From a virus, in the IMG/VR virus record IMGVR_UViG_3300031825_000379, positions 1 through 28,676 of that record: DNA of 28,676 nucleotides; one strand, given 5' to 3'. Numbering within the stretch: the stretch's first letter is position 1; each line of letters starts with the position of its first letter. The notes below the pieces were generated by a model. That model did not search any database and had not been told where the DNA came from. It was given only the letters and a program-made list of their open reading frames with translations. The position numbers were made by a program, and so were the translations under genes. Below are positions 1-4,641 of this stretch, piece after piece.

Positions 1-1296
1 CTACGAAGCGTCTGGCCTGGCCTTTTTTATTGTCGATGTACCGGAAACGTTCCGCTTTGACCCGGCAACCACCGCGTCCAGAGCATCCGCCACCACAGCA
101 TGCTGCCGGCCGCGTCCGAAGTACACATCCTGCGTCATCGACACCTGAGCGTGCCCCAGATGGTCCGCAGCCTGCCGCGCCGACAACCCTTCCTCGTCGA
201 TGATCGTGGCCACAGTCTTGCGGAACGTGTGACTGGTCACCCAGTCGAGCTCCAGGGCTACGCGCACCTGCCGCCACTGCCGCGACACCGTGTCCGGATC
301 GCGCAACGTGTCCACCGCCGACGGGAACACCATCAACCCGCGTTGCGGCCGCGCGCGCAGCATCTCCACCGCGAACCCCGGCAACGGCAACGTCCGCATG
401 CCGGCCGACGTCTTCGTCGTGTCCTCACGCACCAGCCCCACGCCGATCACACGCACCACCTTCCCGCAGATCCGCACCGTCCGCGCCTCGAGGTCCACAT
501 CCTTCCACCGGATGCCGAGCAACTCGCCGATGCGGCACCCGGTCGCGGCGAACAAGGTGATCACGTCGGCCAGGTCTGACGCTGCGCAGTACTGCGCCAC
601 CGTCGGAATCTGCCCTTCCCGCGACGTGGTCCGCAGCCCCTTGCGCTTCTGCTGCTCGGACAACACCACCGGACACGGCGCCGTCGAGTGACGCACATCG
701 TGGAGCACCTGGTTCAGCGTCTGCGCGTCCATGGCCTTGGCCGTCGCCTTCGCCTTCCGCTTGGTCGCCAGGTCCGACACCTCGCGCACCGGGTTGGCCT
801 GGATCGCGCCGAAGCGGACAGCCACCTTGAACATGCCCGACAGGATGGTGCGCACCTTCCTGGCCGTGGGCACGCCGTGCCGGTCGGCCATCTCCCGCAC
901 GAACCGGTCGATCCGCTGGGTGGTCGCCTCCCGGATGGTCTGGTTGCCCAGGCCCGCGACGATCCGAGCCGCCAGGCGGTCGTAGTCCTGCAGGGTGGCG
1001 GGGGAGCGGCCGCCGGCTTCGAGCTGGCGGCGGTACTCGGCCCACAGCACGTGCACCTTCGTCGTGGCGGTGATGTCGCCGTCCTGCGGTGTGGTGCGAT
1101 CGGTCAGTGCCTCGAGCAGGATCCGTTCGGCCACGGCGCCGGTCTTGTCCTTCGCGCCGAGGGGGGTGACGCGGTAGATCTTGCGGGTGACGCCGTCTGC
1201 GTCGCGGACGCGGCACGAGGCGCGCCAGCGCCCGTCGGGCAGCTGGGTGCGTTTGATGTTCCCGTGCGCCCCGATGGGCAGCGAGGGTCTGACCAT
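1..1296 (-). CDS. int: Tyrosine-type phage integrase
   Basis: A 431-residue site-specific recombinase that would insert and excise the phage at attP/attB. An N-terminal AP2-like/SAM-like arm-binding part (about residues 1-180) is followed by the catalytic domain. The full catalytic set is visible: R255 in ATGCRIGELLG, K295 in the beta-hairpin TTKTSAGMRTL, H356-x-x-R359 in SHTFRKT, H382 in DHLGHAQ and nucleophile Y392 in DVYFGR. The ATG at 1296 is chosen because GGAAGGAG lies just upstream; the reading frame stays open further upstream, but that stretch has no family-like sequence and would run back into the metalloprotease gene. It lies 25 bases after the metalloprotease gene on the same strand. 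The stop codon is the first three bases of the window, so the gene is complete. Length and motifs fit actinophage integrases well. Confidence 0.96.
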   Translation of the reverse strand: MVRPSLPIGAHGNIKRTQLPDGRWRASCRVRDADGVTRKIYRVTPLGAKDKTGAVAERILLEALTDRTTPQDGDITATTKVHVLWAEYRRQLEAGGRSPATLQDYDRLAARIVAGLGNQTIREATTQRIDRFVREMADRHGVPTARKVRTILSGMFKVAVRFGAIQANPVREVSDLATKRKAKATAKAMDAQTLNQVLHDVRHSTAPCPVVLSEQQKRKGLRTTSREGQIPTVAQYCAASDLADVITLFAATGCRIGELLGIRWKDVDLEARTVRICGKVVRVIGVGLVREDTTKTSAGMRTLPLPGFAVEMLRARPQRGLMVFPSAVDTLRDPDTVSRQWRQVRVALELDWVTSHTFRKTVATIIDEEGLSARQAADHLGHAQVSMTQDVYFGRGRQHAVVADALDAVVAGSKRNVSGTSTIKKARPDAS

Positions 1297-1321: not shown

Positions 1322-1798
1322 TCAGGGCTGACGCCGCGTGATCTCCCGCTCGACGTAGTCGCGTTCGCGGGGCGTGAGGTGCTGGATGCGGGTCTCGAGC
1401 ACCTCCAGGTCGACCCAGAGTTCCTCGGCGGTGTCGTCGTTGACGCGTCCACGCGTCCACAGCAACGCGTCGACGAGGTGATCGAGTTCGATCAGCTGAC
1501 GCGCCGTGAGGCGCTCGACGACGCGCTCCTCCCGCGGCCCGAAGTACGGATGATCGGGCACTGGGCCGCGCTCGTAGTGTGTGAGCTCGTGGGTGAGGGT
1601 GCTTCGGCGCTCGGCCTGATTGCAGGTCTTGTCGATCTCGATGCCGCGTCGGGTGACGTGGCCGGCTGATCCTTCGGCGGGGTCGACGAAGTGCACCCGC
1701 AAGTGGGGGTGATGGTCCCGGATGTACCGCCATGGATGCCATTTCGATGACTTCACCATGGCGGTATTAGAACACCAGTTCGATGGATAATCTTTCAC
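1322..1798 (-). CDS. ImmA/IrrE-like HExxH metalloprotease
   Basis: A 158-residue predicted zinc peptidase. The motif HELTH at residues 70-74 gives the two zinc-binding histidines and the catalytic glutamate; acidic residues in REERVVERL (about 89-97) could give the third ligand. Small proteases of this kind sit beside integrase and repressor genes in many actinophages. In ICEBs1 the related ImmA cleaves the repressor ImmR. By analogy (inference) it may destroy the repressor encoded at 3539-4159. The start is uncertain: the GTG at 1798 has a weak GGGGG upstream, while the ATG at 1759 (MVKSSKWHPW) has no visible ribosome site but begins where the family-like sequence begins. It is separated from the upstream lysogeny genes by 88 bases and so may have its own promoter. 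Confidence 0.85.
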   Translation of the reverse strand: MKDYPSNWCSNTAMVKSSKWHPWRYIRDHHPHLRVHFVDPAEGSAGHVTRRGIEIDKTCNQAERRSTLTHELTHYERGPVPDHPYFGPREERVVERLTARQLIELDHLVDALLWTRGRVNDDTAEELWVDLEVLETRIQHLTPRERDYVEREITRRQP

Positions 1799-1853
1799 TA
1801 ACCCCCAAATTCACCCAAAAGGGACCACGAAACCCCACGTCAACGCATGGGTG

Positions 1854-1876
1854 ACTCGCGACACGCCGACTCGCGA
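1854..1876. repeat. Direct repeat of ACTCGCGA in the gap upstream of the metalloprotease
   Basis: ACTCGCGA occurs at 1854-1861 and again at 1869-1876, a 15-base period, in the 88-base gap between the 380-aa gene and the metalloprotease. Each copy contains the palindrome TCGCGA. It may be a protein-binding site in the metalloprotease promoter. On the minus strand a TTGACG lies in the same gap but no good -10 follows it. Function is unknown. Confidence 0.3.
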
Positions 1877-1886
1877 AGGTGAGTGA

Positions 1887-3029
1887 CTATCCAGGCAGTC
1901 TCAGCGGTCCGAAACCCACCGGGTTATCAACGCGTAGGTGGCTCCCAGCCCGCGTCACGACGCCTTGGAGTTGGACTGTCTCAGAGTCGGTCATCCATTT
2001 GGTTACGAGATCGAGCGGTGTATTGGTCAAGCGAGCTTCCACAGCGCACAGACGCCCATGGCGGGTGGTGTGAATAGTCGCGTAGACGACAGGGTTATCG
2101 GGGAACTTTGTCACCGTCACGATGGGACCCGTCATGATGTTGAACTCACGCTTCGAGGCGCTCTTGAGTCGCCGGGATGTCTCCACAAGCTTGCTCTTGG
2201 CGTCGGCCGGCACGCTGACAGCAGTAGGCGCGCTTGCCGGTGGAGAACATGCTGGGGCCCACTCGAAGCGGGTCTCGAATTCACTTACGGCATCGTCGTC
2301 GAGGACGCGGGTCACTGCTGACACAAACTCCCTCGTGACACCAGCAGATACCAACTCCATCACCTGGTCGCCACGAGGCAGTGGCTCGGGGGTGAGGACG
2401 TGCGTGTGTAGCGCCAACATCGCTTCCGCGAAGGTTCGGGTCATACGACGCTCTGCAGATTCGGGCCGACCGAGAGTCTGGAGCTCCATCCCCTCGAAGG
2501 GGCCTTCGAAGTCGCTGGGTTGTTCGGGTTCGCTCAGCCGCACATACACCGGGATCATGTACGAGCCACGTTCCGTATGACCCATGCGGACACTCTCGGC
2601 AACAGCGTCACCGATTCTGGAGTACGAGCCTGCGATCTCTGATCGGAGCTTAACGGCGGCTGTGGCTGCGCTTCGAAACATCAGACGAGCGGATTCCAGC
2701 ATCGCTGCGCCGGCATTCAGCGGGATGGTGTCGACGATAACGAAATCGTTCGCAGCCCGAAGGACAGTGACGTCGGTATCCCACAGACGAAGCGCACGAT
2801 CGATCGCGGACTCGGCCTGTTGATGCGCCTCTGCGAGGCGTCGCACAACACCTGAGTAGGCGGTCTCGTCATCCTCTAGCGTGCGCACGAGCGCGAGCCG
2901 ACGGCTATCGCCTTCGCTAGAATCATCGAGCTGCCACATCCACCCCGCGGATCCTTCGGACACCTGGCGCCATCCATGGAGGCGCATCCATGCCTTGGCG
3001 TGGTCGACGAGTGAACTCGTTTCCGTCAT
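1887..3029 (-). CDS. Conserved-type hypothetical protein, 380 aa, coupled to a DUF4365 gene
   Basis: No known function recognised. The 380-residue protein has no membrane segment or signal peptide and looks cytosolic. Its N-terminal third is mixed alpha/beta with a conserved-looking W-rich start (HGWRQ, GWMWQL). A central block (about 90-170) contains FVIVDTIPLNAG, then SARLMFRSAATAAVKLRSEI and GHTERGSYMIPVYV. The C-terminal part (about 275-380) is beta-rich and ends in FGPLRLPG. Its ATG overlaps the stop of the upstream DUF4365 gene (ATGA, bases 3026-3029), so the two are translated together. Base composition is noticeably less GC-rich than the replication and virion genes, which suggests separate acquisition. 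Expression together with the repressor implies a role in the lysogen, for example defence against other phages or exclusion, but this is inference. Confidence 0.85.
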   Translation of the reverse strand: MTETSSLVDHAKAWMRLHGWRQVSEGSAGWMWQLDDSSEGDSRRLALVRTLEDDETAYSGVVRRLAEAHQQAESAIDRALRLWDTDVTVLRAANDFVIVDTIPLNAGAAMLESARLMFRSAATAAVKLRSEIAGSYSRIGDAVAESVRMGHTERGSYMIPVYVRLSEPEQPSDFEGPFEGMELQTLGRPESAERRMTRTFAEAMLALHTHVLTPEPLPRGDQVMELVSAGVTREFVSAVTRVLDDDAVSEFETRFEWAPACSPPASAPTAVSVPADAKSKLVETSRRLKSASKREFNIMTGPIVTVTKFPDNPVVYATIHTTRHGRLCAVEARLTNTPLDLVTKWMTDSETVQLQGVVTRAGSHLRVDNPVGFGPLRLPG

Positions 3030-3538
3030 GACGCAACCTCCTCTCCGAAGGCACCAAACTCGCTCGACAGGTCAGCATGCCACTTCTCCAGGGTGGCGGA
3101 CTGAAATCGATTGCCGATGGGGATATGAATCGACTTCGCGGTGGAGGTTTTGTCGAATCGCTCCCAGTATGCGTGAGTGTTGTGGACGGTGTCTTGCGTC
3201 CGGTAGTCCACCCATCCACTTCGCAACTTCGGGACTACGACGAGGACTACGTAGACCGGAATGTGGCAGCGCTGCCACTTCCTTATCCACGAGTCCTCAA
3301 GGGACACAGTGAATCCTGACTTTGTGGACTTGGGGCTCTCGGTGCACTTGAGTTGCACGCGCACGTCTGCTTCCTCGAACTCGACGGTCGCATCGATTGC
3401 ATGCACGTCGGAGTCCTGTTCGGTGGCCTTCACTGCGCAGCCTGCATGGGCGCACAGGGAGTACAGGTACGAGAGGCTGTATCGAGACTTGGATTGGTCG
3501 ATGCCCAGACCAAAGTCACTCACCGGATGCAGGTTCAT
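3026..3538 (-). CDS. DUF4365-like protein with PD-(D/E)XK-type nuclease signature
   Basis: A 170-residue protein with the layout of the DUF4365 family: an N-terminal helix (YSLSYLYSLCAHAGC), then an acidic strand (DVHAIDATVEF, D49) and VRVQLKCTESP, giving Q62-x-K64. The D...QxK arrangement is the usual active-site pattern of this PD-(D/E)XK-related family, so nuclease activity is plausible but not shown. DUF4365 domains turn up repeatedly in predicted defence genes. The ATG at 3538 directly follows the TAG of the repressor (3539-3541), and the gene's own stop overlaps the start of the 380-aa gene, so the three read as one coupled unit. No independent ribosome site is needed, because the upstream coding end is adjacent. 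Family assignment is by pattern, not by search. Confidence 0.75.
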   Translation of the reverse strand: MNLHPVSDFGLGIDQSKSRYSLSYLYSLCAHAGCAVKATEQDSDVHAIDATVEFEEADVRVQLKCTESPKSTKSGFTVSLEDSWIRKWQRCHIPVYVVLVVVPKLRSGWVDYRTQDTVHNTHAYWERFDKTSTAKSIHIPIGNRFQSATLEKWHADLSSEFGAFGEEVAS

Positions 3539-4159
3539 CTATGCCCCGTTCTCGGGGCCGTCAGGATCGGGATGTTCACCAGGTTCCGTCTCGACCTGTC
3601 GTCGCCGACGCTCCCTCGTCACGTATGCGCGAGAGGCGAGGGGCTCCTGGGTCTCATTCTTCCTACCTTCTTCGTAGACAGTAGATGGTTTGCTCGTTGA
3701 AACAGCCGCGTCGTCTTCCTCCTCCCTGCGGAGCTCGACAACGTTGAAGCCTTGATCCGGCGAATCCAAGTCCTCAGCCTTGCCCTGCTCCTCCAGTTGA
3801 TCGATGCGCTGCTGCTGGGCCACCAATGTCCGTAAGAGCGCAATTGCTACCCGCCGTTCGTCAAGGCCCAACTCATCAACCCCTGGTGGAAGGTCATCGG
3901 CGAACGGGCGGCCCTTCGGCTTGCGTCCCGCTGCTTCCAGCGCCACCCGTTCCGGTACGCCGGCAAGCCATGCCAGCGCGCGGAGGGTGCGTAGTGATGG
4001 ATTCGACTTGTAGGTCCCATTGCGGATCTGGTTGATCGTGGTGTGCACGATCTTGTGGCCGCCCCTGCGTGCGATGTCCTCGAGCTCGCGACCGCTGGCC
4101 CCATCATGTCGCTCGACCGCCAGGTCTATCAGCTCGTTTAACGACTGTGGTTTCTTCAC
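3539..4159 (-). CDS. HTH immunity repressor (putative)
   Basis: A 206-residue protein with an N-terminal helix-turn-helix domain (about residues 5-75: SGRELEDIARRGGHKIVHTT, then INQIRNGTYKSNPSLRTLRA) and a long charged, proline- and glutamate-rich C-terminal half with a coiled-coil stretch (LLRTLVAQQQRIDQLEEQGK). Position (first gene of the leftward block, divergent from a Cro-like gene, with repeated operator half-sites between) makes it the likely lysogeny repressor. The GTG at 4159 is the only reasonable start: an in-frame TAG lies two codons upstream and the protein contains no internal methionine. GGAGGGG lies about 14 bases upstream, slightly far. The unstructured C-terminal tail replaces the peptidase domain of lambda CI, so inactivation may instead use the nearby metalloprotease. 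Confidence 0.8.
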   Translation of the reverse strand: MKKPQSLNELIDLAVERHDGASGRELEDIARRGGHKIVHTTINQIRNGTYKSNPSLRTLRALAWLAGVPERVALEAAGRKPKGRPFADDLPPGVDELGLDERRVAIALLRTLVAQQQRIDQLEEQGKAEDLDSPDQGFNVVELRREEEDDAAVSTSKPSTVYEEGRKNETQEPLASRAYVTRERRRRQVETEPGEHPDPDGPENGA

Positions 4160-4310: not shown

Positions 4311-4374
4311 ACAGCGAAGAGTGGAGGGCAGGATGGGACGAGCAAGGCCACCGAAGATCCGGAGGGAAGTCTGG

Positions 4375-4641
4375 ATGAAAGTGAAAGACCCAGGTCAGAT
4401 CCGACGCTGGCGTAAGCAGAGGCACTACACGCAGCGTGAGCTCGCCTACCTGGTCCGTCGCACCCAGGCCACAATCTGGCAGATCGAAGCGGGGCGTCTG
4501 ACCAACATCAGCGAAGACCTCGCCGTAGCTATCGCGGCCCGCCTCGATGTGCCATGGGAGGACCTTTTCACCGCACATGAGTCCGTTCTCGTGCCCACGA
4601 TGGAAAGCGCTGTTAACTCCGAACACCGAGTGCCGGCATGA
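4375..4641 (+). CDS. Small Xre-family HTH regulator (Cro-like)
   Basis: An 88-residue Xre/Cro-type DNA-binding protein. The helix-turn-helix is clear: RRWRKQRHYTQRELAYLVRR, TQATIWQIEAGR, then SEDLAVAIAARLDVPWEDLF. It is the first gene right of the operator region and divergent from the repressor, the classic position of Cro. The ATG at 4375 is preferred because GGAGG lies 9 bases upstream. An ATG at 4333 with GGAGGG only 4 bases away would add 14 residues (MGRARPPKIRREVW), which are basic and could be genuine. The stop overlaps an ATG at 4638 (ATGA), but the next gene probably starts further on. Confidence 0.85.
   Translation: MKVKDPGQIRRWRKQRHYTQRELAYLVRRTQATIWQIEAGRLTNISEDLAVAIAARLDVPWEDLFTAHESVLVPTMESAVNSEHRVPA

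What the first reader, a model, noticed from the sequence alone, without database searches (positions are those of the whole stretch)
1887..3538. DUF4365 nuclease-like gene plus an unknown 380-aa gene locked into the lysogeny operon
Seen: the repressor stop TAG touches the DUF4365 ATG (3538/3539), and the DUF4365 stop overlaps the 380-aa start (ATGA 3026-3029). The pair is therefore made whenever the repressor is made. The region is less GC-rich than the rest. Known: DUF4365 proteins have a PD-(D/E)XK-like D...QxK site and are frequent in predicted defence loci; prophages often carry lysogen-expressed anti-phage cassettes next to the repressor. Inferred: this is a two-gene effector/sensor system protecting the lysogen. 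The 380-aa partner has no recognised fold.
Basis: partly seen in the sequence, partly recalled or inferred. Interest (0 to 1): 0.8.

Follow-up and report, generated by a model that had tools for sequence, protein, structure and literature searches.

The report
Prophage-borne nuclease–sensor defence pair
A bacterial virus that lives inside its host carries, right behind its own off-switch gene, a two-gene cassette (a DNA-cutting enzyme and a probable nucleic-acid-binding partner) of a widespread but still untested family of suspected anti-virus systems, so the dormant virus probably guards its host against other viruses.

Summary
In detail: repressor, 170-aa DUF4365 gene and 380-aa gene form a gapless minus-strand run (TAG|ATG junction, then a 4-nt ATGA overlap). 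The 380-aa partner is not unknown to databases: the pair matches both halves of PADLOC's candidate defence system PDC-M02 (M02A 2e-21; M02B 1e-54, nearly full length). The genes are adjacent in 83 of 89 loci from several phyla, mostly with the same overlap; seven Streptomyces copies lie in Druantia-type loci. The predicted M02A fold is the DREN nuclease of SPARDA with invariant D49…Q62-x-K64. M02B models confidently: an unassigned N-terminal part plus a C-terminal OB fold (SSB/PriB-like). The phage resembles Gordonia/Mycobacterium phages, and the pair fills a variable slot between immunity repressor and IrrE-like metalloprotease; the same slot holds CarolAnn's proven two-gene defence. A second repressor–M02A–M02B run, with another repressor type, occurs in another viral contig. 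Best reading: a lysogen-expressed defence cassette in which M02B senses nucleic acid and unleashes a DREN nuclease. Defence is likely but undemonstrated; co-expression and trigger are inferred. New variant of a known kind (cI-rexAB, CarolAnn 43/44), not a new kind.

The parts
3026..3538 (-). M02A: 170-aa DUF4365 protein, PD-(D/E)XK nuclease of the SPARDA-DREN type; D42, D49, Q62, K64
   Evidence: Pfam 1.8e-14; PADLOC PDC-M02A 2.3e-21; AF2 pLDDT 89.3; SPARDA DREN Foldseek 1.5e-6, VIA Z 14.0 over 140 aa, 3.6 A
1887..3029 (-). M02B: 380-aa partner; N-terminal alpha/beta part without a fold match (1-~290) plus C-terminal OB fold (~290-380)
   Evidence: PADLOC PDC-M02B 1.1e-54 over 6-366; AF2 pLDDT 89.5, pTM 0.81; OB fold VIA Z 9.6 to S. 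coelicolor SSB
3026..3029 (-). ATGA overlap joining M02A stop and M02B start
   Evidence: sequence; the same 4-nt overlap is possible in 63 of 89 related loci
3536..3541 (-). junction repressor TAG | M02A ATG
   Evidence: sequence
3539..4159 (-). immunity repressor (HTH), related to Gordonia/Mycobacterium phage repressors
   Evidence: tblastn 66 phage records, best E 5e-28 among the rows listed; PHROG 6288/12831; Pfam HTH_3 0.0021, below cut-off
4324..4641 (+). divergent Cro-like HTH gene (start codon uncertain)
   Evidence: HTH_3 2.8e-8; position as in relatives
1322..1759 (-). IrrE/M78-like metalloprotease (HELTH motif), far border of the cargo slot
   Evidence: 46% to Bosnia gp43, 45% to CarolAnn gp42; Peptidase_M78 1.1e-3, below Pfam cut-off
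1..1296 (-). tyrosine integrase (start codon uncertain)
   Evidence: Phage_integrase 6.7e-20 for 1-1290
1760..1886 (-). 127-nt gap between M02B and the metalloprotease, with a weak terminator-like hairpin at 1836-1821
   Evidence: (5 such sites in 4,800 bases, 2.5 expected by chance)

Best explanation
A PDC-M02 system carried as cargo in the immunity operon of an actinobacterial temperate phage. In the lysogen the repressor promoter should also give M02A and M02B (inferred from the gapless layout). M02A is a DREN-type PD-(D/E)XK nuclease held idle; M02B holds it and senses infection, most likely through its OB-fold domain binding a nucleic acid or nucleic-acid-protein signal of phage replication. 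On sensing, M02A cuts DNA (phage, host or both) and the infection fails, so the prophage and its host population are protected. Shown by computation: family, folds, active-site conservation, pairing, slot. Inferred: co-expression, complex formation, which protein senses, trigger, substrate, and protection itself.
For: PDC-M02A/B matches. Pair adjacent in 83 of 89 loci, 63 with a start giving the 4-nt overlap, and in 17 of 17 matches found by M02B alone in 397 genomes. A and B distances correlate, r 0.93 over 75 pairs, largest of 2000 permutations 0.20. D42, D49, Q62, K64 each 78 of 78. M02A fold = SPARDA DREN, whose D41/Q60/K62 are catalytic (PMC12205087, passages); a weak PADLOC match to an Argonaute-associated nuclease model, 1.4e-4. 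OB fold in M02B. Defence neighbours: DruA, DruE, GajA/B, AbiE, type II R-M against none as strong in a small control. Same slot holds CarolAnn 43/44, both required for defence. Second repressor-M02A-M02B run in L016.
Against: No phage assay of any PDC-M02 found. The defence label comes from embedding. prophi102-2 carries the pair far from its repressor. In 75 genome loci with the pair called, only 49 have the upstream gene on the same strand and 31 within 150 nt; some copies sit behind an ETF-like or leuC-like gene. M02B's OB match is modest by Foldseek (none at E 0.001 or better); an OB fold is common and also binds other ligands. No complex was modelled.
Confidence: 0.66

Rival explanations
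1. Toxin-antitoxin (addiction) pair: M02A is a toxic nuclease, M02B its antidote, and the pair stabilises the prophage rather than fighting phages.
For: Two co-translated genes, one a nuclease; Xavia carries a DUF433 gene and a weakly PIN-like gene in the same slot.
Against: Partner is large (380 aa) with an OB fold, unlike most antitoxins (recalled); Streptomyces copies lie in Druantia-type loci. Many TA pairs also defend, so the two readings overlap.
Confidence: 0.15
2. Phage housekeeping: a Holliday-junction-resolvase-like nuclease plus ssDNA-binding protein for recombination or integration.
For: M02A also matches archaeal Hjc (VIA Z 9.9 to 8.2) and M02B matches SSB/PriB.
Against: SPARDA DREN scores clearly higher (Z 14.0 to 11.5); the pair lies in the repressor direction, not with the early lytic genes; M02B relatives occur in only 2 of 50,697 phage records by tblastn, so phages rarely need it.
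Confidence: 0.08
3. Lysogeny-control accessory (as suggested for lambda RexA): the pair tunes the repressor switch.
For: Operon position as cI-rexA-rexB; a RexA-family gene (annotated) in the same slot of Sejanus.
Against: M02B shows no profile match to three RexA-like proteins (hhalign probability 0.3 of 100); the slot is empty in BritBrat and Lucky10.
Confidence: 0.06
4. Neutral or decaying passenger gene pair.
For: Distant from all relatives found (23-44% identity over the matched segments of the 17 matches).
Against: Both frames are intact, active-site residues and the overlap are kept, both models are confident.
Confidence: 0.05

Closest known systems
PADLOC PDC-M02 (candidate phage-defence system, two genes M02A+M02B)
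   Same: Both proteins match their family models; same order; same 4-nt overlap as most relatives; defence neighbours in several relatives
   Different: Here it is in a temperate phage's repressor operon; divergent member (best nearly full-length relative found 40% identical)
Gordonia phage CarolAnn gp43/gp44 (and Mycobacterium phage Sbash gp30/gp31; lambda rexA/rexB as compared by the CarolAnn authors)
   Same: Two genes directly behind the immunity repressor, before the same metalloprotease-type gene; defence shown for CarolAnn (PMC6426606)
   Different: Unrelated proteins: no profile match of M02B to the gp44 family; M02A is a nuclease
SPARDA (short pAgo + DREN-APAZ)
   Same: M02A has the DREN (DUF4365) nuclease fold and the D...QxK site
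   Different: No APAZ fusion and no Argonaute match; the partner is M02B with an OB fold
PDC-M30A (with DUF5131 in Easley) and PDC-M04A (DUF3800) cargo in related phages
   Same: Occupy the same repressor-metalloprotease slot (Easley, Bosnia, Dori)
   Different: Different protein families

Membership tests
PDC-M02 (PADLOC) | M02A model match | tested here: met
   PDLC04291 2.3e-21, residues 8-152
PDC-M02 (PADLOC) | M02B model match over nearly the whole protein | tested here: met
   PDLC04311 1.1e-54, residues 6-366
PDC-M02 (PADLOC) | the two genes adjacent | tested here: met
   4-nt overlap; relatives 83 of 89
PDC-M02 (PADLOC) | anti-phage activity | not testable with these tools
   no assay found; library searches
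DUF4365 / PD-(D/E)XK | Pfam score over cut-off | tested here: met
   54.4 bits, cut-off 24.3
DUF4365 / PD-(D/E)XK | nuclease core with catalytic D and QxK on neighbouring strands | tested here: met
   D49 in strand 47-53, Q62/K64 in strand 58-66 of the model; each 78 of 78; fold match
SPARDA | nuclease fused to APAZ, with a short Argonaute partner | tested here: not met
   170-aa protein with a DUF4365 match only; the 380-aa partner has no Argonaute-domain match at E 1 or better
RexAB-type exclusion system | two genes cotranscribed behind the repressor | tested here: inconclusive
   layout met; transcription not measurable here
RexAB-type exclusion system | RexA-family protein | tested here: not met
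   hhalign of 85 M02B against CarolAnn gp44, Sbash gp30 and Sejanus gp46: probability 0.3 of 100, E 0.22; lambda RexA itself was not compared
Repressor-metalloprotease cargo slot of Gordonia/Mycobacterium phages | related repressor on one side, IrrE-like metalloprotease on the other | tested here: met
   repressor 49% over 138 aa to BritBrat gp40; metalloprotease 46% to Bosnia gp43
OB-fold proteins | OB fold in the C-terminal domain | tested here: met
   VIA Z 9.6, 87 aa, 3.1 A to 4dam; Foldseek best 2.1e-3
OB-fold proteins | binding of ssDNA or RNA | not testable with these tools
   needs a binding assay

The most novel reading that the evidence does not exclude
PDC-M02 is an Argonaute-free counterpart of SPARDA: M02B uses its OB fold to detect single-stranded DNA or a replication-protein complex of an incoming phage and assembles the DREN nuclease M02A into its active multimer. 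Temperate phages have repeatedly put this switch under their own repressor, as one of several exchangeable cassettes in a dedicated repressor-metalloprotease slot.
Probability: 0.27. Interest if true: 0.7.

Novelty: new variant of a known kind. Interest (0 to 1): 0.5.

Why it matters
It turns an unexplained pair into a testable system with named active-site residues and a natural expression context. PDC-M02 is widespread (a relative in at least 16 of 397 genomes sampled from one actinobacterial order, and loci in several phyla), and I found no experiment on it in the library searched. The slot between repressor and metalloprotease in Gordonia/Mycobacterium phages looks like a ready-made place to find further lysogen-expressed defence cassettes: 13 of the 15 phages examined carry cargo there, and one cargo, CarolAnn's, is proven.

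Tried and rejected
Tried without use: phage tblastn with the DUF4365 protein (no match); the search for related loci with the single 380-aa protein (no relative confirmed in viral or genome contigs); profile searches of PDB sequences (best E 0.88 and 0.5); a sigma-70 promoter scan (0 sites; other promoter types are not covered); three further viral scans that only returned contigs already in hand.

Rejected: RexA homology of M02B. A natural M02A-M02B fusion (no ORF in L104-L136 hits both models). An early impression that the Streptomyces copies sit at a housekeeping gene: the large neighbour is DruE where tested and the 670-aa one DruA where tested. The N-terminal part of M02B gave no fold match; since the OB domain filled the PDB lists, this says little. 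A whole-length structural match, Leptospira phage LE1 protein Q6NE06 (Foldseek 1.2e-16), could not be followed to its neighbourhood.

Own error: the metalloprotease was first given out of frame (1322-1760 instead of 1322-1759); those negative results for it are void, and replace them. It was not rerun against PHROGs, PADLOC, NCBIfam or the phage records. In one search only four candidates a genome were scored in the rows shown, so 16 of 397 is a lower bound. In one search the M02B start nearest the M02A stop was taken, which favours short spacings; the 63 exact 4-nt overlaps are start codons that exist, not measured starts.

Full report
WHAT IS THERE. The window is a 28,676-bp viral record. 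On the minus strand, in order of transcription, lie a 206-aa repressor (3539-4159), a 170-aa DUF4365 protein (3026-3538), a 380-aa protein (1887-3029), a metalloprotease (1322-1759) and a tyrosine integrase (about 1-1296); a Cro-like HTH gene (4324-4641) is divergent. Repressor and DUF4365 gene abut without a base between them, and the DUF4365 and 380-aa genes overlap by 4 nt. GC of the three genes is 0.615, 0.571 and 0.609 against 0.664 downstream of the Cro-like gene. Parts of the structural genes match 138 phage records, mostly Mycobacterium and Gordonia, at 74.7-79.2% identity in the 15 rows listed (at most 11% of the query covered). The repressor matches 66 phage records, 56 of them Gordonia. 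The phage is thus of the Mycobacteriales type; the host is unknown.

WHAT THE PAIR IS. The 170-aa protein is over Pfam's DUF4365 cut-off and matches PADLOC PDC-M02A (2.3e-21); the 380-aa protein matches PDC-M02B (1.1e-54 over residues 6-366). PDC names denote candidate systems found by "guilt by embedding", most of the common ones without experimental validation (PMC12988326, passages). No paper in the library holds 'PDC-M02'; 10 hold 'DUF4365', four of them Argonaute papers by title (listing; passages of two of these). The original PDC source was not among the papers found, so I have not read it.

CONSERVED PAIRING. An M02B alignment found 80 loci in genome contigs (115 of 131 pattern matches confirmed, the best 80 kept), by record title in Actinomycetota, Pseudomonadota, Chloroflexota, Planctomycetota, Verrucomicrobiota, Bacteroidota and Gemmatimonadota among others, and five viral contigs. 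With one phage and three plasmid loci this makes 89 loci. In 83 an M02A-type ORF ends within 150 nt of an M02B start on the same strand, and in 63 of these a start codon gives exactly a 4-nt overlap; 5 have no M02A (L020, L026, L065, L087, L013; L020's M02B frame begins 178 bases from the end of the stretch held) and one, L082, has it 2.7 kb away. Five of the 89 loci gave seeds to the M02A model, so they match by construction; in five (L003, L042, L072, L080, L097) the M02A match is split over two frames. In a search with M02B alone of 397 genomes of one order, 16 genomes gave 17 matches, and all 17 have M02A beside them; L118 and L123 repeat loci of the first set. A and B distance matrices correlate at r = 0.93 over 75 pairs (largest of 2000 permutations 0.20): the two travel as a unit.

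FOLDS. M02A: AF2 pLDDT 89.3. The best solved matches are the DREN domains of SPARDA (Foldseek 1.5e-6; VIA Z 14.0, 140 aligned, 3.6 A), ahead of the next group, archaeal Hjc resolvases (Z 9.9). D42, D49, Q62 and K64 are each conserved in 78 of 78 sequences with a residue there (79 aligned; loci with no or split M02A were left out). In NbaSPARDA, D41, Q60 and K62 are the catalytic residues, DREN alone shows no detectable activity and it works as a tetramer on the filament (PMC12205087, passages); Q62A/K64A is the inactive mutant made for TmuRE (PMC10810196, passages). D49 lies in strand 47-53 and Q62/K64 in strand 58-66 of the model, the same arrangement; that D49 rather than D42 is the metal ligand is inference. 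M02B: pLDDT 89.5, pTM 0.81. Residues 290-380 are an OB fold (Z 9.6, 87 aligned, 3.1 A to S. coelicolor SSB; PriB, RPA domains and other OB proteins, some that do not bind nucleic acid, follow); by Foldseek the best E-value is 2.1e-3 and none reaches 0.001. The N-terminal part has no assigned fold. D86, T152, G155, S156, R194, W257 and G356 are invariant in 85 sequences. One viral model, Leptospira phage LE1 Q6NE06, matches over the whole length (1.2e-16, TM 0.53).

CONTEXT OF RELATIVES. I took 113 genes (90-1199 aa, own gene calls) within 4 kb of 22 pairs, every third of 64 genome loci with enough flank. Of 251 PADLOC families matched at 1e-5, the 25 shown include DruA (2 genes, best 5.6e-296), GajA, GajB, REase_II, MTase_II, DrmMII, AbiEi, AbiEii, a DRT reverse transcriptase and DruM, each with a best E below 1e-48, and MzaB (2 genes, 5e-22). 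Three genes match Phage_integrase, while many others are ordinary metabolic or regulatory genes. A control of 67 genes from 7 arbitrary stretches of the sampled order gave 22 families, best mad3 at 2.9e-39 and IetA at 1.1e-29. The calls list families rather than genes and the two samples differ in size and taxonomic spread, so this is a contrast and not a rate. I looked closely at seven of the ten Streptomyces loci: in all seven the pair lies 76-273 nt behind an 1860-1868-aa gene, and six have a convergent 670-aa gene near by. Two of the large genes (L047, L063) are DruE1 and one of the 670-aa genes (L062) is DruA1. Other copies sit behind an ETF-like gene (Nocardia L044, L050, L051, L059) or a leuC-like gene (L088, L094) (these names rest partly, partly on recall). 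So not every copy is in a defence island.

THE SLOT. I looked at 15 phages: 13 of those among the 66 records whose repressor matches the window's, plus CarolAnn and Sejanus. In each, a variable stretch lies between the repressor and an IrrE-like metalloprotease-type gene (by annotation or position, and by alignment for nine of them). It is empty in BritBrat and Lucky10 and holds one to three genes in 13. In 11 of these 13 the first cargo gene overlaps the repressor stop or begins within 3 nt of it, much as in the window; Xavia (89 nt) and Sejanus (197 nt) differ. Cargo scanned: PDC-M30A (Easley 3.1e-44, Bosnia 1e-20), DUF5131 (Easley), DUF3800/PDC-M04A (Dori), DUF433 plus a PIN-like match below cut-off (Xavia); proteins from Sahara, Wrigley, Suerte, Vasanti and CarolAnn gp44 gave no match over a Pfam cut-off and no PADLOC match at 0.001 (Suerte's and one Wrigley protein against Pfam only). 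Cargo of Matteo, Ebert and Mask was not scanned; Sejanus carries an annotated RexA-family gene. CarolAnn gp42 is 94-96% identical to the metalloproteases of Bosnia, Vasanti and Easley, although its repressor shares only a short stretch (25-33 aa) with those of Vasanti and Bosnia, so repressor and cargo look exchanged against a kept border. The window's metalloprotease is 33-46% identical to these nine. [quoted passage not shown] passages, section 8 in full). Variability of this genome centre was already noted by those authors, who also report that not all such defence genes are coexpressed with the repressor.

SECOND REPRESSOR OPERON. In viral contig L016 (59 kb) a CI-type repressor with HTH and S24 domains over Pfam's cut-offs overlaps by 7 nt the M02A frame as called, which overlaps M02B by 4 nt; a divergent gene beside it looks Cro-like by eye (not scanned). 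The window's repressor gave no S24 match, so the two repressors are of different types and M02 seems to have been coupled to a repressor at least twice. Of six intact pairs in phage or viral records with the surroundings seen (window, L012, L014, L015, L016, prophi102-2), two are in a repressor operon; the others were judged by eye except prophi102-2, which has the pair as genes 1-2 at the prophage end and its annotated repressor as gene 18.

MECHANISM AND VERDICT. Best reading: a lysogen-expressed sensor-effector pair, with M02A the nuclease and M02B the regulator that detects infection through nucleic acid. Family, folds, active site, pairing and slot are shown by computation; co-expression, complex, trigger and protection are inferred. 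Compared with known systems it works like cI-rexAB and CarolAnn 43/44 in placement and like SPARDA in its nuclease, but is neither of these by its second protein; it is a member of PDC-M02 as far as sequence can tell. I score interest 0.5: well-grounded and testable, but the family was already listed as a defence candidate and the placement has a proven precedent.

Noticed in passing
L006-L011, L138-L145, L147 (repressor-metalloprotease stretch): The slot between immunity repressor and IrrE-like metalloprotease in Gordonia/Mycobacterium phages holds exchangeable cargo (13 of 15 phages examined), in 11 directly coupled to the repressor; several cargo proteins match no family.
   Followed up: partly
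L047, L054, L055, L058, L062, L063, L064: In these seven Streptomyces loci the M02 pair lies directly behind a DruE-sized gene (DruE1 in the two tested) and, in six, opposite a DruA-sized gene (DruA1 in the one tested by name): M02 within Druantia-type loci.
   Followed up: yes
L016 6408-9077: A second Cro-like / repressor-M02A-M02B arrangement with an S24-type repressor in another viral contig.
   Followed up: partly
L003 4362-4906: The DUF4365 gene upstream of M02B on an Ornithinimicrobium plasmid is split over two frames, decay or a sequencing error.
   Followed up: no
Leptospira phage LE1 protein Q6NE06 (fold library): A 381-aa protein of a spirochaete phage matches the M02B model over its whole length; whether a DUF4365 gene sits beside it was not seen.
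   Followed up: no
L012 3338-4276: A 312-aa gene that by eye resembles abortive-infection C-terminal proteins lies next to the M02 pair in the closest viral relative; it was not scanned.
   Followed up: no
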